Positions 12,243 through 47,813 of a DNA stretch of 60,748 nt are shown one piece after another. Both the position numbers and the translations under genes were made by a program. The stretch comes from an uncultured Bacteroidia bacterium (lineage in GTDB: Bacteria > Bacteroidota > Bacteroidia > Bacteroidales > Prolixibacteraceae), in the NCBI GenBank assembly GCA_903850335.1, contig CAINLJ010000269.1:1-60748 (forward strand). Reading direction: 5' to 3'. How positions within the stretch are numbered: the stretch's first letter is position 1; every line of letters starts with the position of its first letter. The notes under the pieces are model-generated. The model worked only from the letters and a program-made list of their open reading frames with translations. It made no database searches and was not told the DNA's origin.

Positions 12243-14093
12243 ATGAACTATAAAAGATTACTTGCCATCTCATTAATACTGACGTATACTATTCTGTTGA
12301 ATGGACAAAACATAAATATTATTCCTAAGCCCAAACTGATTTCTGTGAAAAAAGGAGAATTTGCTCTTAACCGTAAAACCATCATTTCCTTCAACGATCC
12401 TCAGCTTAAATTTCTTGCAAATTATACCTCGTCAACAATCAGGTCGTTGAACAATATGGAGCTGACTGTTAAAAAACAAAGTGGAACACTACCAAGTATC
12501 AGTACTATCAATTTAATTCTTGATGGAAAAGCAAATACAGGTAAAGAAGGGTATCAACTAAACGTAAATACATCCTCCATTACGATAAAGGGAACTACAT
12601 CGCAGGGGGTTTTTTACGGTGTGCAGAGTCTGTTACAACTTATTCCTTACTCTGGAGATTCTAAAATTCAGGCTCTTGAAATAAAGGATGAGCCCCGTTT
12701 TGGATGGCGTGGTTTGTTATTGGATGTTAGCCGTCATTTCTTCACAATTGAAGAGGTAAAGCGACTTATTGATCAGATGGTGGTCTATAAATTCAACCTC
12801 CTTCACCTTCATTTAACAGATGATCAGGGTTGGAGAATTGAGATTAAGAAACTTCCGGAACTTACAAAGGTAGGTGCCTGGAGAGTTCCCAGAACTGGAT
12901 TATGGTGGGACCGTCAACCACCGGAAGAGGGTGAAGCTGCAACATACGGAGGGTTTTATACCCAGGAACAGCTCAAAGATCTTGTCAGATATGCCTCTGA
13001 CCGATATGTAAATATTCTACCTGAAATTGAGGCTCCGGGTCATGGACTGGCAGCCATAGCTTCTTACCCCTATTTGTCCTCATCAAAAAATAAATTTAAA
13101 GTCAATCCGGGGTCTAAGTTCTATACAATTGATGATAACACTTTTTGTGCAGGAAAAGAATCAACATTTGAGTTCCTGGATATTGTCCTGACCGAAGTAG
13201 CTGATTTGTTTCCGTTCGAATACATCCATATCGGAGGAGACGAGTGTTATAAGGGTTTCTGGAAAAAATGTGAGGAATGTCAAAAACGGATAAAGGATAA
13301 TGGATTGAAGGATGAAAATGAATTGCAGAGCTATTTTATTAAACGTCTTGAAAAGATTCTTCAACAAAAGGGTAAGAAACTCATGGGATGGGATGAGATA
13401 CTTGAGGGAGGACTTGCACCCAACGCAACAGTTATGTCATGGCGTGGAATGGATGGTGGTATTGCGGCAGCAAAGGCTAGTCATCACGTAGTCATGAGCC
13501 CTAATAATTATGCATATCTTGACTTATATCAGGGAGATCCTGCCCTCGAACCACCAACATACAGTCTTTTGCGTTTAAATACAGTTTATTCATTCGAACC
13601 GGTCCCTGCAGGAATAGACTCTTCCTTTATTCTGGGCGGTCAGGGCAACTTATGGTCCGAAAGTGTACCAACTTTCCGGCATGCCGAATATATGTTCTGG
13701 CCTCGCTCCTTTGCCCTCGCAGAGGTTTTGTGGACACCAAAAGAAGGGAAAAACTGGAATGACTTTATTAACCGGACTGAGAAACAATTGGATCGACTTT
13801 CACACGCTGATATCAATTATTCAAGCAGCTTTTACGATGCAATTATCAATCCGTCAAAAGATGAGAACGGCAATCTGAAGATCCGGTTAGAAACAGAAAT
13901 CGAAGGGATGGAAATTTATTATACTTTTGATAATACCTATCCGGATCATCACAGCCCAAAATACAAAAAAGGAGAAATTCTTAGTATCCCAAAGGATGCT
14001 GATACGTTCAGGGTTATTACCTACCGGGGTGGAAAGCCGTCTGGAAGAATAATTACTGTGCCATTATCGGATTTGGCTAAGAGACTGAATTGA
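12243..14093 (+). CDS. Beta-N-acetylhexosaminidase, GH20
   Basis: The 616-residue protein has a signal peptide (residues 1-22), an N-terminal GH20b-type alpha/beta domain (about 25-150), the GH20 barrel (about 155-500) and a C-terminal chitobiase-like beta domain (about 540-610). The substrate-assisted catalytic pair is D333-E334 in HIGGDECYKGFW; other family landmarks are RGLLLDVSRHF, LHLHLTDDQGWRIEI, and MGWDEILEGG. The enzyme should remove terminal GlcNAc or GalNAc from glycans in the periplasm. It starts 2 bp after the preceding lipoprotein gene, so translation is probably coupled. Function is secure at the family level; whether N-glycan, chitin or another HexNAc polymer is used is not visible. 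Confidence 0.93.
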   Translation: MNYKRLLAISLILTYTILLNGQNINIIPKPKLISVKKGEFALNRKTIISFNDPQLKFLANYTSSTIRSLNNMELTVKKQSGTLPSISTINLILDGKANTGKEGYQLNVNTSSITIKGTTSQGVFYGVQSLLQLIPYSGDSKIQALEIKDEPRFGWRGLLLDVSRHFFTIEEVKRLIDQMVVYKFNLLHLHLTDDQGWRIEIKKLPELTKVGAWRVPRTGLWWDRQPPEEGEAATYGGFYTQEQLKDLVRYASDRYVNILPEIEAPGHGLAAIASYPYLSSSKNKFKVNPGSKFYTIDDNTFCAGKESTFEFLDIVLTEVADLFPFEYIHIGGDECYKGFWKKCEECQKRIKDNGLKDENELQSYFIKRLEKILQQKGKKLMGWDEILEGGLAPNATVMSWRGMDGGIAAAKASHHVVMSPNNYAYLDLYQGDPALEPPTYSLLRLNTVYSFEPVPAGIDSSFILGGQGNLWSESVPTFRHAEYMFWPRSFALAEVLWTPKEGKNWNDFINRTEKQLDRLSHADINYSSSFYDAIINPSKDENGNLKIRLETEIEGMEIYYTFDNTYPDHHSPKYKKGEILSIPKDADTFRVITYRGGKPSGRIITVPLSDLAKRLN

Positions 14094-42970: not shown

Positions 42971-43003
42971 CAACAGGAATGTTTGATTATTCGGATGTTA
43001 ACC

Positions 43004-43053
43004 GGCTATAATCGGTTATATCCGGATATAATCGGATATAACCGGTTATAATC
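43004..43053. repeat. Five-unit 10-bp ladder (GGNTATAATC)
   Basis: Five exact 10-bp steps: GGCTATAATC, GGTTATATCC, GGATATAATC, GGATATAACC and GGTTATAATC. The period is one helical turn, and the units are also arranged as overlapping palindromes (ATATCCGGATAT, ATAACCGGTTAT). It lies about 35-90 bp upstream of the -7 element of the 42161-42901 gene. Confidence 0.85.
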
Positions 43054-44187
43054 GTATAAATTGGGGTGAAATTCAAGCCAAACGGTTTTCCGAGTCAGCA
43101 TACTCAAGAAGCAGATCAAAATTTTGTTTACTCATAAAATTAATAATCAATAGCTTACCCATAAATCGAATGAAGCATCCGAGACCCGCGGTTTGTAACC
43201 GCGGATTTTTAATTGTATTTACTGTGAAATAAAAATATTTATAGAATTCAATCATTGGGTCTATTTCGTCCACTCCGGGACGAGGGTTTGTATACGAAGG
43301 ATATTTTCTACCCGTATTAAATCCCTTCGGGATTAATGAAACAATTTAACTCGTTTTAAGTCCCAAAACCTATACTGCTATTCACAATTAAATATATTTT
43401 CCTGAGTCACGGGACTCCAAACATGGTAAAAAGTATTGACCAGCAATTTTTTTTACAGGAAAAAGTAAACACTGCTCAAATGAAAATGCCGTTGGTAAAT
43501 GTATAAAGTTAAATTTTTGTGTATAAACAGAGATTTATTGTCCTGGAGACAGGTGCAGAGCACCGATGATATTTGTAGTAAATTCGACACAAACCTGCAG
43601 TAGGTACAGCGTACCGTAATATCATTGCATTCCTTAAAATACACTACCAAAAAATATAAAAGTCTAATGATGTTTAAATCCAAAATAATTGTATCCGGTT
43701 AAAAAATAAATATTCGTTCCAAATACAATGGAATAAAAAAATAAAGAGATGTCGCCACGACGTAAATACGATTCTGCTTCATTGATAATCTTACAATGAT
43801 TTGGCAGCTACGCAGCCAGATTTCAGCCATGAAGTTGCGGAATCTTTGTAGCTAAATTTATTGCGAAATTTCTAAAGCAACGTAGTTGTGGCATCTTAAA
43901 AGGTTATCATCTTAGCCGTACAATCCTAAGGTGCACCAGCAGGGAACAAGTATTACTTTTTCCAAAATTTATAACTATTGTGGTCTTTTTACAATAGCAT
44001 CAATTTCCTTTAACTGTAACCCGACAGGGTTATAAAATATTGACCTGCAAATTTTTATTGGAGGTATTGAATTAGTTTTAAACCGTAACTCTTAAATCGG
44101 CTGAATTTAAACTCCCCATTTTAAATTTATTCAATTCTTTTAAGGTTGTCCTGGATGTATGTTATCTATTTTCTTAAAATTAGTACG
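43054..44187. repeat. Gene-free stretch with several small hairpin repeats (excluding separately listed elements)
   Basis: No credible gene is seen. Structures present are: CCGCGGTT/AACCGCGG (43186-43204), followed by ATTTTTAATT; AATCCCTTCGGGATT (about 43319-43333); GGTGCAGAGCACC (about 43552-43564), followed by GATATTTGTAG; the related GGTACAGCGTACC (about 43602-43614); and two similar segments around TATTGACC (43433-43450 and 44038-44055). The complete family B element is listed separately. This is one flank of the restriction-modification island. Confidence 0.7.
43745..43895 (+). repeat. Dispersed hairpin repeat, family B (left flank of R-M island)
   Basis: A complete copy, like 37260-37401, beginning AGAGATGTCGCCACGACG and ending CGTAGTTGTGGCATC. 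It contains TACAATGATTTGGCAGCTACG and GAAGTTGCGGAATCTTTGTA as inverted arms. Its first 75-80 bp occur in reverse orientation at 47075-47152, on the other side of the R-M genes. Confidence 0.8.
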
Positions 44188-45057
44188 TTATATTATTTCT
44201 ATACAGTTATAGAATTGTGCAATATCAACTAATGTATAAATATGCATTTCAGGTCTCTTAAAATAAATCTGGCTAACAAGCTGATATTTATAATTAATTA
44301 CTGCATGATGCATTGCTCTATGGCAATTAGGACAAAGGCAAATAATATTATTGAGATTATCCAATGGAGTTGTAAACAGATTTTGGTACCTCATAGGGAT
44401 TAAATGATGTGCCTCAAAAAATGGCAGATTAGTCTTTTGAGCCAAGAATGTTAAATGAGAAGGATCTATTTCACACTTAAAATTGGATAGTATTAATCTA
44501 TTAACAGCAAGCCTAGGATCTCTTTGATAAATTATCCTTCCATTTGAGTTAATTTTTTTAATTCTACCTTTAGGAGAAATATCAAATGGCTTTTTTGTAA
44601 TTAAAGAATTTTCAATTATTTCCTGATATTCTAAATCTTCATTGTCGACTTGACCTAATAAATTCCAATTTTTTTCTTCTAAAGAGCCAATTACAATATC
44701 ATGATCTTGATTTATAAATATAAACCAAATATCTCCACCCTTAGGTTTATAACCTCGACTTTGAGCCAAGTAAAGTCTTAATTCTGTTTTTTTTGATTTT
44801 GGATAAACCAAATTCAAATAGACAGGTTCAAGTAAATTTTTATCAAAACTAAAAAGCATAAATTTTTTTAGGGATTTATCAATATTCCCTTTTACACTCC
44901 CAACATGAATACTATCACAACCAAAATAATTAATAACTAATTCTGCCTCATTATCAGTTAATGTTATTTGCGAATCGAAGTATTCTCTAGTTGTTACACG
45001 AGAATAGGCTCCATTTAGAGCCTTAAAAAAAATATTATGAAAGGGTTTAAATTCCAT
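44188..45057 (-). CDS. HNH-family type II restriction endonuclease (R)
   Basis: The 289-residue protein ends in an HNH nuclease domain: paired His H217-H218 in FEAHHLIPM, then DNLNNIICLCPNCHRAMHH with Asn about 236, C242/C245 as probable zinc ligands and H246. C195 is a further candidate ligand. The first 180 residues have no motif I can name (LNLVYPKSKKTELRLYLAQS, KPKGGDIWFIFINQ) and probably recognise the DNA target. Its start overlaps the methyltransferase stop by 11 bp on the same strand, so the pair is translated together. It should cut the sequence protected by the adjacent C5 methyltransferase; the target cannot be read from the sequence. AT-rich codon use like the rest of the island suggests horizontal transfer. 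Confidence 0.85.
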   Translation of the reverse strand: MEFKPFHNIFFKALNGAYSRVTTREYFDSQITLTDNEAELVINYFGCDSIHVGSVKGNIDKSLKKFMLFSFDKNLLEPVYLNLVYPKSKKTELRLYLAQSRGYKPKGGDIWFIFINQDHDIVIGSLEEKNWNLLGQVDNEDLEYQEIIENSLITKKPFDISPKGRIKKINSNGRIIYQRDPRLAVNRLILSNFKCEIDPSHLTFLAQKTNLPFFEAHHLIPMRYQNLFTTPLDNLNNIICLCPNCHRAMHHAVINYKYQLVSQIYFKRPEMHIYTLVDIAQFYNCIEII

Positions 45058-46276
45058 TTAGTTTAATTTTATTTTTATTTAAACTCTCTAAAATATTTTT
45101 TCCAATATCCTGAATTACGGGAATTGCAACTGAATTACCAAATTGTCTATATGCAGCTGCATTGCTTGATGGTAAGATATAATCTTGTGGATACCCTTGA
45201 AGCCTTGCACATTCCAGTTTTGTTAATTTGCGAGGATTTTTTCCTGGTTGGGGAATAAGACATTCTTTACCATCTTTACCATACCTTGCAACAATAGTAT
45301 TTGAGGGTTTTTCAATATCAGCAACAAAAGCTGTAAAACCCGTTCCTCGATCTAAATTTGCTTTAGTCCTTCTTATATGACCTTCCCAAAGTTTATCAGA
45401 AATCGTATATTCATCTGAAACATTTTGCTCCAGAATAGATTTTAACTTTAATGGTTCACCGGAATACTTAGGAAACTTAAAAAACGGGTTTCTTTTCTTA
45501 AAGAAGACCATGTAAAATCTCCTACGGTTTTGCGGCACTTTTAAATTAGCGTTTATTTCTTGTGTATGTATATCGTAGTTTAATGATTCCATAACTGCCA
45601 ACACGGTTTTTAAGGTATCTCCATTATTGTGTGTCTGAAAATTTTTTACATTTTCAAGAAAAACAACTTCAGGCTTTTTGACTTCAACAATTCGAACTAT
45701 ATCATAAAAAAGTGTTCCTTGTATCTTATCAAGAAAACCATGAGCTAAGCCAAGATGATTTCTGGCAGAAACTCCAGCTAAACTAAATGGTTGACATGGG
45801 AATCCCCCTGTAAGAATATCATGGTCTGGAATCATTAAATTCAATTTCTCATCAGAAATTGAATCTCGTGTAAAATTTCTAATATCCCCAAACGGACATT
45901 CACCGAAATTTAAAGTATATGTTTTTTTTGCTGATTTATCAATTTCTGAAGAAAATACACATTTGCCATTAAGATTTTGTAAAGCAATACGAAATCCACC
46001 TATTCCAGCAAATAAATCAATGAAGGTAAACTTATGATTTATTGGTGGAGGGAATGTGGCTATAAATTCAAATGGTAAATAAAGCTGTTCTGATTCTTCA
46101 ACTTTCGTATTATCAAATTTCTCTAGAAATATTTTTGCTTGATCCTCAAAATAATTAGACTTAAAATAATCCCTATTTTGAAAATGATGACTTAGACTTG
46201 CTAGCCCGTCTCCAAGGCTTTTATCAATGTTAATTTCATTGATAGTTAATTTATTGTTTAGGTTTGTGTATTTCAC
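45047..46276 (-). CDS. DNA (cytosine-5-)-methyltransferase (M) of a type II R-M system
   Basis: The 409-residue protein contains the C5 methyltransferase motifs in order: I, FIDLFAGIGGF (residues 85-95); IV, GGFPCQPFSLAG with catalytic C161; VI, FLENVKNF (E208); VIII, PQNRRRFYMVFF (249-260); the variable target-recognition region (about 265-340); IX, RKLTKLECARLQGYP; X, YRQFGNSVAIPVI. About 80 residues precede motif I, longer than in minimal enzymes. It methylates C5 of cytosine within the restriction site. The gene follows the controller gene by 24 bp and overlaps the endonuclease gene, so a C-M-R operon is likely. The TRD gives no hint I can interpret on its own. Confidence 0.95.
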   Translation of the reverse strand: MKYTNLNNKLTINEINIDKSLGDGLASLSHHFQNRDYFKSNYFEDQAKIFLEKFDNTKVEESEQLYLPFEFIATFPPPINHKFTFIDLFAGIGGFRIALQNLNGKCVFSSEIDKSAKKTYTLNFGECPFGDIRNFTRDSISDEKLNLMIPDHDILTGGFPCQPFSLAGVSARNHLGLAHGFLDKIQGTLFYDIVRIVEVKKPEVVFLENVKNFQTHNNGDTLKTVLAVMESLNYDIHTQEINANLKVPQNRRRFYMVFFKKRNPFFKFPKYSGEPLKLKSILEQNVSDEYTISDKLWEGHIRRTKANLDRGTGFTAFVADIEKPSNTIVARYGKDGKECLIPQPGKNPRKLTKLECARLQGYPQDYILPSSNAAAYRQFGNSVAIPVIQDIGKNILESLNKNKIKLNGI

Positions 46277-46300
46277 TAAATCAATTTTATTATTGTGCTA

Positions 46301-46519
46301 TTACTTTTTGTCTAAAACAGAGAAAAAGTCTTTAAATGATATATCTAAGGCCTTTATGATTTTTTCAATATTGACTATTGCTACATTTCTTTTACCATTC
46401 TCCACACTTGCCATATAGGTTCGGTCAATTTCTGCCAATAAAGCCAATTGTTCTTGTGACAAGCCTTTTGCTTTCCTTAATTCTCTGATTCGCAAGCCAA
46501 TTTTGATTCTTATATCCAT
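46301..46519 (-). CDS. Controller (C) protein, XRE-type regulator of the R-M operon
   Basis: The 72-residue protein is a single helix-turn-helix domain of the C-protein type: IGLRIRELRKAKGLSQEQLA, then LAEIDRTYMASVENGKRN with recognition helix DRTYMASVE, and the tail NIEKIIKALDISFKDFF. Size and sequence pattern match the controllers of PvuII- and Esp1396I-type systems, which first activate and then repress their own operon. A two-site C-box lies 22 bp upstream. A TACTTTTA element (complement of 46524-46531) only 4 bp from the ATG suggests a leaderless transcript, as known for other C genes. The protein is expected to delay endonuclease production after entry into a new host. Confidence 0.9.
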   Translation of the reverse strand: MDIRIKIGLRIRELRKAKGLSQEQLALLAEIDRTYMASVENGKRNVAIVNIEKIIKALDISFKDFFSVLDKK

Positions 46520-46523
46520 AGGT

Positions 46524-46567
46524 TAAAAGTATTTGACTGTTGATTATGAGTCAACGGACTATGAGTC
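46524..46567 (-). promoter_or_regulatory. C-box (two controller-protein operators) and promoter of the C-M-R operon
   Basis: On the minus strand GACTCATAGTC (complement of 46557-46567), spacer CGTT, then GACTCATAATC (complement of 46542-46552). The first half-site is an exact GACTnnnAGTC palindrome and the second has one substitution, which matches the strong distal and weak proximal operators of classic C-boxes, including the CGT spacer. TACTTTTA (complement of 46524-46531), one base off TAnnTTTG, lies between the boxes and the ATG. Binding first at the strong site would activate and then at the weak site repress. Confidence 0.85.
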
Positions 46568-46620
46568 ACGTTTGGATTTTCTGTAACCTAATTGATAATC
46601 TGTATTTAAAATAATTGGAT

Positions 46621-47034
46621 TTAACAAATCTCAGAAAGCAAACTTCCTAATGCGATGGATTGCCCGTTCTTTTTTAACTGGCATTCCCAGACAATAATAA
46701 CCTTCCAGCCCAGTACATTCAAGGCAACCTCCGCAGCCTTATCCCTGGCCATTGTTGCTTTGATTTTTTGAAACCACCATTCTGTCCGTGTTTTGGGTAA
46801 CACGAAATACGAACATCCTTTGTGACCATGCCAGAAGCAACCATTCACAAAAATTACCGTTTTGTATTTGGGTAATACAATATCCGGTTTCCCGGGAAGT
46901 TTAGGGACATGCAACCGGTAACGGAAACCATTGGCAAACAAAAACTTCCTCACCACCATCTCCGGTTTGGTATCCTTCGCCCTGATACGGCTCATATTAT
47001 AACTGCGGGTTTCTTTGTTGTGTACATCAGCCAT
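46621..47034 (-). CDS. vsr: Very short patch repair endonuclease (Vsr)
   Basis: The 137-residue protein matches Vsr: the start MADVHNKETRSYNMSRIRAK, then KDTKPEMVVRKFLFANGFRYRLH, GKPDIVLPKYKTVIFVNGCFWHGH with the catalytic Asp of the PD-(D/E)xK-like fold, and WWFQKIKATMARDK. ATG 47034 is chosen over 47133 because residues upstream of it have no family similarity and 47079-47133 lies in a dispersed repeat. It nicks DNA at T-G mismatches that arise when the 5-methylcytosine made by the neighbouring methyltransferase deaminates. It is the first gene of the island on this strand and is separated from the C gene by 101 bp that carry the C-box, so it is probably expressed from its own promoter. Confidence 0.93.
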   Translation of the reverse strand: MADVHNKETRSYNMSRIRAKDTKPEMVVRKFLFANGFRYRLHVPKLPGKPDIVLPKYKTVIFVNGCFWHGHKGCSYFVLPKTRTEWWFQKIKATMARDKAAEVALNVLGWKVIIVWECQLKKNGQSIALGSLLSEIC

Positions 47035-47074
47035 AAAACAAAGATAAAAAAATGCCAAAACTCCTGAACTTAAA

Positions 47075-47152
47075 TCAGGCTGCGTAGCTGCCAAATCTTT
47101 GTAAAATTCATAGTGAAGCAGAATCGCAGCCAAGTTGTGGAGACATCTCTGT
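47075..47152 (-). repeat. Dispersed hairpin repeat, family B (partial, right flank of R-M island)
   Basis: The complement reads AGAGATGTCTCCACAACTTG, GATTCTGCTTCACTATGAAT and TTTGGCAGCTACGCAGCC, matching the first 75-80 bp of the copy at 43745. It is inverted relative to that copy, so the two bracket the R-M genes. Confidence 0.75.
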
Positions 47153-47813
47153 TCAATTTTTATTTTATGATACTAGTAAACAACATCGAACCTCAAAGTG
47201 GGTTTTCATGAATTAACAGATGTTATTAAAACCAATTAATCCGAATCAAATGCCCTGCCACAAAGTGGCTGAATCCGAATAACCCCCGGTGAAGCGAAAC
47301 GGAACCGGGGGTAAGGATGCGGTTACATTAACAGCCCCGGCAGCGGGGTGAACCAGAGTTAGGGGAGTTTGAAATAAAACACTCTTAGCCTTCCTTACTA
47401 ATCATGGATCCGGAACCTTTCCAGAAGTGGTTATCCATTCCGTCCGGCATGCGGGTCAGCGCTTCTATGAACGTTTGTTCGCAGACGGTATAAGCACATG
47501 TCCTGTCTACCCCCGGGTTACGGACGAACCTTACCCGGGGTTATCCGTCTGACGGATAGCCCCTCAGCTGTAAATCGTTGATTTATTTTTGATTCTGACT
47601 TTCAGGGAGATACACCACCGGGTCAGGCGAATTTTATTCGCCTTTTTAAGAAGTCAAATCAAAATCAGCTTTTCCTCGGTTGGAAACCACTGGACCCGGA
47701 TGTAGTCCTCATTTAAATTGTGATGACCAGATAGCCCTTACAGAATTAAGTTTCAAAATCCAAAACGGATAATTACCTTTAGTCCTTAAACGTTTAGACA
47801 AAAACAGTATGCC
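47153..47813. repeat. Gene-free stretch with GC-rich hairpin repeats
   Basis: No gene is seen. Structures: ACCCCCGGT/ACCGGGGGT (47282-47312), a family that recurs at 51067-51097 and 56909-56939; AGCCCCGGCAGCGGGG (about 47332); TACCCCCGGGTTACGGACG with its partner CTTACCCGGGGTTATCCG (about 47508-47550); and a 30-bp hairpin unit at 47620-47649 (GGCGAA/TTCGCC plus a T run) whose inverted copy is at 51525-51554. TACCTTTA near 47775 is a one-mismatch -7 element in front of the next gene. Confidence 0.7.

What the first reader, a model, noticed from the sequence alone, without database searches (positions are those of the whole stretch)
46301..46567. C-M-R restriction-modification operon with an almost ideal C-box in a Bacteroidota genome
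The minus strand shows GACTCATAGTC, CGTT, GACTCATAATC just upstream of a 72-residue XRE protein, closely matching the operator pair of classic controller proteins. A -7-like element lies 4 bp from the ATG, suggesting a leaderless transcript. The order is C, M, R in one likely operon with M and R overlapping by 11 bp. In most known C-systems C precedes R and M has its own promoter, so here delay of R relative to M must come from something else (for example translational coupling or mRNA decay).
Basis: partly seen in the sequence, partly recalled or inferred. Interest (0 to 1): 0.72.

Follow-up and report, generated by a model that had tools for sequence, protein, structure and literature searches.

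The report
Bacteroidota V-C-M-R restriction cassette, self-regulated
A bacterium of the phylum Bacteroidota carries a small DNA-defence gene cassette in which a self-regulating switch protein sits in front of both the protective enzyme and the likely DNA-cutting enzyme, an unusual order that turns up repeatedly in related bacteria with similar switch sites and different cutters.

Summary
The minus strand carries vsr, a double C-box operator, a 72-aa C.AhdI/C.BclI-type controller (C), a Dcm-like cytosine-5 methyltransferase (M) and an HNH protein (R); M and R overlap by 11 bp. The operator occurs once in the 5.5-Mb genome. A -7-like element lies 4 nt before the ATG, predicting a leaderless transcript.

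Of 81 C loci compared (window included; best 80 of 370 relatives), 26 have C then a C5 methyltransferase on one strand, all in Bacteroidota; 19 of the 26 have vsr just upstream of C. The nuclease position varies: HpaII, EcoRII, MvaI/BcnI, HNH, GHKL, AAA, NOV_C.

The operator ends 17-22 nt before the start codon in 70 of 72 Bacteroidota loci. C's -7 element is never a full TAnnTTTG (0 of 72, though 13 reach a full score when TAnnTTGY is allowed); vsr's is in 10 of 23. This suggests a basal vsr promoter plus a C-dependent one.

No own M promoter is evident or excluded. What delays R is open. New variant of C-controlled Type II restriction-modification; nothing bench-tested.

The parts
46538..46569 (-). 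32-bp operator GTGACTCATAGTCCGTTGACTCATAATCAACA: upstream box OL (GACTCATAGTC) and downstream box OR (GACTCATAATC)
   Evidence: identical 32 of 32 to the operator of locus L094 (candidate division BRC1 / Sumerlaeota)
46552..46555 (-). GTTG at -36 to -33 from the predicted start, -33-like, at the junction of the two boxes
   Evidence: read; position counted from the C start; -33 consensus TTTG as quoted in PMC7366714, a motif that PMC6847099 finds much less evident
46524..46531 (-). -7-like element TACTTTTA (5 of 6 to TAnnTTTG), 4 nt before ATG; predicted start is the A of ATG
   Evidence: consensus at -12 to -5 as in PMC9723704 and PMC6847099
46301..46519 (-). C: 72-aa controller protein, C.AhdI/C.BclI type
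   Evidence: PADLOC Control_protein 1.4e-23; 1y7y C.AhdI 3.3e-17; 2b5a C.BclI 3.3e-15; 3clc, the C.Esp1396I entry, 3.4e-11
45047..46276 (-). M: 409-aa cytosine-5 DNA methyltransferase, Dcm-like
44188..45057 (-). R candidate: 289-aa HNH protein, McrA-like HNH domain at about 153-265, N-terminal part unassigned; overlaps M by 11 bp
   Evidence: relatives only of part of the protein, always including the HNH part,
46621..47034 (-). V: 137-aa Vsr mismatch endonuclease, stop 101 nt before the C start
47039..47046 (-). TATCTTTG, perfect TAnnTTTG, 4 nt before the vsr ATG: candidate C-independent promoter

Best explanation
A Type II restriction-modification cassette in the order vsr-C-M-R, run by an AhdI/PvuII-type controller circuit fitted to the Bacteroidota promoter. 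Shown from sequence: the genes, the operator, the -7-like element and its position, the M-R overlap, and the recurrence in relatives. Inferred: a C dimer binds the upstream box (OL, centred near -43) and activates a weak promoter whose transcript starts at the C start codon. A second dimer on OR (centred near -28, over the -33 region) represses it. C, M and R then come from one leaderless mRNA, so C sets the level of both enzymes rather than of R alone. Also inferred: basal C-independent expression comes at least partly from the vsr promoter by read-through, and M is favoured over R by gene order and by R starting inside the end of M.
For: C matches C.AhdI best in PDB. The C.Esp1396I base-contact residues R35, T36 and R46 (PMC4041747 passages) align with window R33, T34 and R44; the register is my reading. 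Operator form GACT-tat-AGTC with a GT-centred spacer is as described in PMC4824078. The operator is upstream of C in all 81 loci compared, its 3' end 17-22 nt from the start codon in 70 of 72 Bacteroidota loci. A -7 element of at least 5 of 6 lies before C in 49 of 72 against 42 of 392 control ORF starts, Fisher p about 1e-23; related genomes are not independent and control starts are longest-ORF starts. In 25 C-M loci the longest M ORF starts between 53 nt inside the C end and 52 nt after it, and in 16 of 25 at or inside the C stop. No second operator scoring above 8 lies between the C and M starts in the 25 C-M loci scanned. No terminator-like site in 44000-47300.
Against: No transcription start, binding or activity is measured. 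The TAnnTTTG scan has a high background: 21% of shuffled upstream stretches reach 5 of 6. A -7-like match (5 of 6) also lies 5 nt before the window's M start. In relative L101 the R candidate has a perfect -7 element 4 nt before its own start, 233 nt after M, so R may be separately promoted in such loci. R has no full-length relative and its N-terminal part is unassigned, so Type II cleavage at M's site is assumed. Weak avoidance of CCWGG in the window (107 seen, 133.5 expected) gives no clear sign of an active system. Absence of terminators is weak evidence (1.5 expected by chance).
Confidence: 0.75

Rival explanations
1. M has its own promoter inside the end of C or the 24-nt gap, so M is expressed constitutively and C mainly serves R by read-through, close to the classical logic.
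For: TAAAATTG, 5 of 6 to TAnnTTTG, lies 5 nt before the window's M GTG.
Against: Such matches are not enriched before M: 3 of 25 C-M loci at 5 of 6 or more with the wider motif, against 42 of 392 control starts (TAnnTTTG only) and 21% of shuffles. In 16 of 25 C-M loci the longest M ORF starts at or inside the C stop.
Confidence: 0.2
2. R is not a Type II partner of M but a methyl-directed (Type IV, McrA-like) HNH nuclease that ended up behind M.
For: The HNH part matches EcoKMcrA (6ghc, 8.4e-08) and PADLOC mREase_IV (2.4e-08).
Against: Only the HNH end of R matches. A nuclease cutting M's product would be suicidal in one operon (inference). PADLOC also matches REase_II (8.6e-06). In 9 of the 19 C-M loci with a same-strand gene next to M (window included) that gene belongs to a Type II REase Pfam family.
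Confidence: 0.12
3. A decayed or silent system: genes present but one or more not functional.
For: The relative with the most similar C, L083 (85% identical), keeps vsr, C and operator while its M reading frame is broken.
Against: In the window all four ORFs are open, M matches the whole C5 methylase profile and R the HNH profiles.
Confidence: 0.1

Closest known systems
AhdI / PvuII / Esp1396I C-controlled Type II R-M systems
   Same: Small HTH controller; paired GACT-N3-AGTC boxes with a GT-containing spacer; operator over the -35/-33 region of the C promoter; leaderless C transcript (Csp231I and PvuII: PMC4824078 and PMC2997769 passages)
   Different: C is followed by M and then R in one run, instead of C-R with a separate M promoter; Bacteroidota -7 element; vsr in front
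Kpn2I
   Same: C protein acts on methyltransferase expression
   Different: There C represses a separate strong M promoter and R is C-independent (PMC6237814, abstract and passages)
Mycoplasma gallisepticum Type I hsd locus with a C-family gene
   Same: C gene upstream of hsdM, S, R, apparently acting on the whole operon (review PMC12707154, passage)
   Different: Type I system, repression reported, other phylum
vsr-dcm-MvaI/BcnI plasmid system of Spirosoma (L068) and dcm-MvaI/BcnI of Runella (L067)
   Same: Related C5 methyltransferase (41-44% identical), M-R order, vsr in front in L068
   Different: No controller gene annotated between vsr and dcm or before dcm
MORC/paraMORC (GHKL) operons with C5 methylase and Vsr
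   Same: C5 methylase, Vsr and GHKL ATPase neighbourhoods as in L084, L085, L088, L106
   Different: The passages seen of PMC2292703 and PMC8011034 name no C protein or C-box

Membership tests
C-controlled Type II R-M (AhdI/PvuII type) | Small XRE/HTH controller of the C family | tested here: met
C-controlled Type II R-M (AhdI/PvuII type) | Two C-boxes of GACT-N3-AGTC type upstream of C | tested here: met
   OR has one change from the perfect palindrome
C-controlled Type II R-M (AhdI/PvuII type) | Operator overlaps the core promoter; leaderless C transcript | tested here: inconclusive
   Geometry fits; no transcript data
C-controlled Type II R-M (AhdI/PvuII type) | C directly precedes R, M has its own promoter | tested here: not met
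   C-M-R order; own M promoter not seen clearly but not excluded. Literature calls the C-R order typical, not universal (Kpn2I)
C-controlled Type II R-M (AhdI/PvuII type) | C binds the operator, activates and then represses | not testable with these tools
   needs footprints and reporters
Type II R-M | M and R act on the same sequence | not testable with these tools
   M target-recognition region is 35-49% identical to Dcm/EcoRII/MvaI-linked and AAA-linked methyltransferases and 22-26% to HpaII-linked ones; R unassigned
Vsr family | Vsr domain over most of the protein | tested here: met
   (TIGR00632 above cut-off)
Type IV McrA-like enzymes | Full-length similarity including the methyl-DNA-binding N-terminal part | tested here: not met
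   searches match only residues 153-265 or within

The most novel reading that the evidence does not exclude
vsr-C-M is a portable two-promoter regulatory front end of Bacteroidota for exchangeable effectors. A full-consensus leaderless promoter at vsr gives C-independent read-through, and a sub-consensus leaderless promoter gives the C-dependent surge and shut-off. Effectors range from Type II REases to GHKL (one MzaB-like) and AAA defence proteins, and in some lineages M is further favoured by a Shine-Dalgarno sequence in a phylum that otherwise lacks them. (Odds lowered from 0.4 to 0.35 on rechecking: 13 of 72 C promoters reach a full score once the TAnnTTGY variant is allowed, so 'sub-consensus' does not hold for all.)
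Probability: 0.35. Interest if true: 0.65.

Novelty: new variant of a known kind. Interest (0 to 1): 0.5.

Why it matters
The usual account of C proteins is that they delay R relative to M. In a C-M-R operon C cannot do that by transcription alone, so these cassettes make it directly testable whether C is a delay device or a level-setting device. The same operator (identical over 32 bp in L094) sits 18 nt from the start codon in the window and 40 nt in a member of another phylum, a natural experiment on how such a switch is refitted to a new sigma factor and new translation rules. It also suggests C control of GHKL- and AAA-type defence genes, which I did not see described in the listings and passages viewed.

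Tried and rejected
R relatives: genome contigs (42 stretches, none confirmed), viral contigs (14, none), phages (none), plasmids (68 records, none covering 80% of R); in the 395-genome draw only one genome besides the window's own has a match, to residues 141-270. Structure of R from one sequence: mean pLDDT 31.7, discarded, no fold search made. Site avoidance in the 60-kb window only: weak for CCWGG (0.80) and CCNGG (0.88), strongest of the 11 motifs tried for GGCC (0.56); not decisive. RNA folding at the C, M and R starts: no stronger than shuffles. Sigma-70 promoter scan: 16 found, 15.2 in shuffles.

Inverted 109-nt arms around the island looked like mobile-element ends, but the sequence is a dispersed repeat with 6 matches in the genome, 5 of them in this window.

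A further operator-like site at window 12278 (score 13.2) lies inside the 616-aa ORF 12243-14093 and was taken as chance.

Shine-Dalgarno as the general answer to M before R was rejected for the window: its M has none. In the family 9 of 25 M starts have a strong SD and 6 more a weak one; strong in 0 of 72 C (2 weak), 0 of 19 R (1 weak) and 4 of 272 control ORFs (14 weak). Six of the 9 come from Mucilaginibacter; merging these with L087 leaves 3 of 19, p 0.007 (only this group was merged). Of 10 loci of the second draw only L037 has a strong one and L059 a weak one; L037 is the same place as L109, and L036 the same as L106.

Own error: the vsr query was out of frame (47036 instead of 47034); it was redone, and only one search is used for counts.

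Full report
What is there. On the minus strand the window reads vsr (46621-47034), a 32-bp operator (46538-46569), C (46301-46519, 72 aa), M (45047-46276, 409 aa, GTG start, 24 nt after the C stop) and R (44188-45057, 289 aa, overlapping M by 11 bp). Pfam gives HTH_3 for C, DNA_methylase for M, HNH for R and Vsr for V; NCBIfam gives dcm for M and vsr for V, both above cut-off, nothing for R and only sub-cut-off HTH families for C. The best PDB matches of C are C.AhdI (3.3e-17) and C.BclI (3.3e-15). The 26-base double-box pattern with up to 3 mismatches occurs once in the 5,545,537-base genome, with no match to the reversed control.

Promoter geometry. TACTTTTA ends 4 nt before the C ATG. In Flavobacterium the -7 element TAnnTTTG lies at -12 to -5 (passages of PMC9723704, and PMC6847099), so the predicted start is the A of ATG. 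Leaderless mRNAs are a minority in this phylum: about 3.7% of 5' UTRs are under 10 nt in B. thetaiotaomicron (PMC7366714) and 5.5% of mRNAs are leaderless in F. psychrophilum (PMC9723704). GTTG at -36 to -33 falls at the junction of the two boxes. [quoted passage not shown]

Relatives. A profile of 11 C proteins found 370 relatives in genome contigs, of which the best 80 were kept. With the window this makes 81 loci. Seventy-two are from Bacteroidota; nine are of other or unnamed phyla (L091, L092, L094, L118, L140, L143, L147, L156, L161). All 81 carry the operator above control (the matrix was trained on them). The operator's 3' end is 17-22 nt from the start codon in 70 of 72 Bacteroidota loci and in 2 of 9 others. 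Seven of the nine others have 29-40 nt, and several of these show Shine-Dalgarno-like sequences before the start (my reading). In L085 and L086, the two Bacteroidota exceptions, the start codon may be misassigned. The window operator is identical over 32 positions to that of L094, where it lies 40 nt from the start instead of 18. The short spacing is not confined to Bacteroidota: among 12 plasmid C hits the Shewanella one (L075) has a good operator 18 nt before its start; L071, L073 and L076 have good ones at 33-50 nt, L074 and L081 weak ones (9.5 and 7.5), and the other six score below 4.

Strength of the -7 element. With the element lying between -20 and -3, 49 of 72 C genes reach 5 of 6 and none 6 of 6; of 392 control ORF starts (longest ATG ORFs of 150 aa or more in the same loci) 34 reach 5 and 8 reach 6; 21% of shuffled upstream stretches reach 5 or more. 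If TAnnTTGY (the SM5 type of PMC9723704) is allowed as well, with the stretch extended to the start codon, 65 of 72 reach 5 or more and 13 reach 6; no matched control was run for this wider motif. For vsr, 10 of 23 starts have a perfect TAnnTTTG, 4 nt from the ATG in 9 and 5 nt in one; 7 reach 5 of 6 (the best of the nearby candidate starts was taken, which favours high scores; this set of 23 includes L153, whose vsr is 1150 nt upstream, and leaves out L121, whose match is partial). The window's vsr has TATCTTTG at 4 nt. The vsr stop lies 53-197 nt before the C start in the 20 loci measured, and in several the operator fills nearly the whole gap. Read-through from vsr into C is therefore plausible, but not shown.

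Architecture. Of the 81 loci, 26 have a C5 methyltransferase after C on the same strand (called C5 by motif in the script, checked by family scan for the window and for L084, L105, L109 and L158). That is 26 of 72 Bacteroidota and 0 of 9 others (p 0.05). Vsr lies on the same strand within 900 nt upstream of C in 23 of 81 loci: 19 of the 26 C-M loci and 4 of the 55 others. Of those four, L083 has a broken M and L157 ends soon after C, while L113 and L110 lack an intact M in the ORF table. Nineteen of the 26 have a same-strand gene next to M, within 6 nt or overlapping except in L101 (233 nt). By Pfam or PADLOC these are HpaII in 5, EcoRII in 2, MvaI/BcnI in 2, GHKL ATPase in 4 (one MzaB-like), AAA in 2 (L105; L121 below the Pfam cut-off), NOV_C in 1, HNH in 1 (window) and no match in 2 (L101, L103). 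In the other seven the next gene is on the opposite strand (six) or M runs off the contig (L159). The label C-M needs 9 changes on the C tree (at least 5 forced by well-supported branches; shuffled mean 22.3), so it is clustered but arose or was lost more than once (short sequences, weak deep forks).

A second draw. In 395 Bacteroidota genomes, 57 (own included) have a C match at 1e-8, 71 places in all. I fetched wide regions for 32 of these places, mostly the best-scoring. Nine show C, C5-M and a further gene on one strand (L036, L037, L045-L048, L058-L060), and L063 does with an extra ORF between. Six of these (L045-L047, L058-L060) have a differently spelled twin repeat upstream of C. Some genomes are shared; L036 and L037 are the same places as L106 and L109. 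In plasmid records outside Bacteroidota I looked at 12 of 123 records with a C hit: 5 look like R-M loci (L071, L073, L075, L076, L078), with C next to a nuclease or hypothetical gene and M on the other strand; none of the 12 was C-M-R.

M and R. M is 41-48% identical to the Dcm-like methyltransferases linked to MvaI/BcnI or EcoRII-type nucleases in these loci and plasmids. Its target-recognition region is 35-49% identical to those, to two other plasmid Dcm-like enzymes and to AAA-linked ones, and 22-26% to HpaII-linked ones. The likeness to M.SsoII is recalled, not tested by name. A CCWGG- or CCNGG-like target is therefore a guess. R's HNH part matches EcoKMcrA; the rest is unassigned, and R is rare.

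Delay of R. C sits before both M and R, so C alone cannot order them by transcription. Own promoters of M are not enriched (3 of 25), and no second operator above score 8 lies between the C and M starts. R starts with a -7 element of 5 or more are 2 of 19, one of them perfect (L101). Candidates are gene order with translational coupling, vsr read-through giving early M, and, in some relatives but not in the window, a Shine-Dalgarno sequence before M (9 of 25 strong against 4 of 272 controls and 0 of 19 R), formed in different amino-acid contexts (GG, GR, RRG). Coupling has a counter-example: in PvuII, R translation was found independent of C (PMC2997769 abstract and passages). Bacteroidota otherwise lack SD sequences (PMC6847099 passages).

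Compared with what is known. C normally precedes R, often overlapping it (PMC3850674, PMC6237814, PMC2997769 passages). Exceptions met in the passages are Kpn2I and the Mycoplasma gallisepticum Type I locus (PMC12707154). Sorokin et al. 2009, the systematic survey of C proteins, was not held, so it may already list such loci. The other paper searches showed no description of vsr-C-M-R in their listings. GHKL-C5-Vsr neighbourhoods were described in PMC2292703 and PMC8011034 (passages) without a C protein in the passages seen. All papers were seen as search listings, abstracts or passages; none was read whole.

Noticed in passing
43745-43853 and 47042-47150: 109-nt inverted arms (76% complementary) frame the vsr-C-M-R island almost exactly; they belong to a dispersed repeat with 6 matches in the genome, 5 of them in this window.
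   Followed up: partly
L083:4480-6700: Locus with the most similar C: vsr, C (85% identical) and operator intact, methyltransferase frame broken by stops, then an open HNH-like ORF of about 223 aa: regulator kept while the enzyme decays (HNH by eye).
   Followed up: partly
L085, L087, L108, L109, L124, L138, L144, L152, L153 (before M): Strong Shine-Dalgarno sequences before M in a phylum said to lack them, made in different amino-acid contexts of the C tail.
   Followed up: partly
L084, L085, L088, L106, L105, L121: C-boxes and C in front of C5-M followed by GHKL or AAA genes, that is, possible C control of systems beyond simple Type II R-M.
   Followed up: partly
L108, L109, L138, L152 and relatives (before C): The -7 element is TAGCTTGC, a TAnnTTGY type that PMC9723704 thinks most likely belongs to an alternative sigma factor.
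   Followed up: no
L101:6671 (R candidate start): The gene after M has a perfect TAnnTTTG 4 nt before its own start and lies 233 nt after M, so it may be promoted separately.
   Followed up: no
42999-43058: Palindromic repeat with TAACCGGTTA-like units at 10-bp steps, 5 overlapping 20-nt copies.
   Followed up: no
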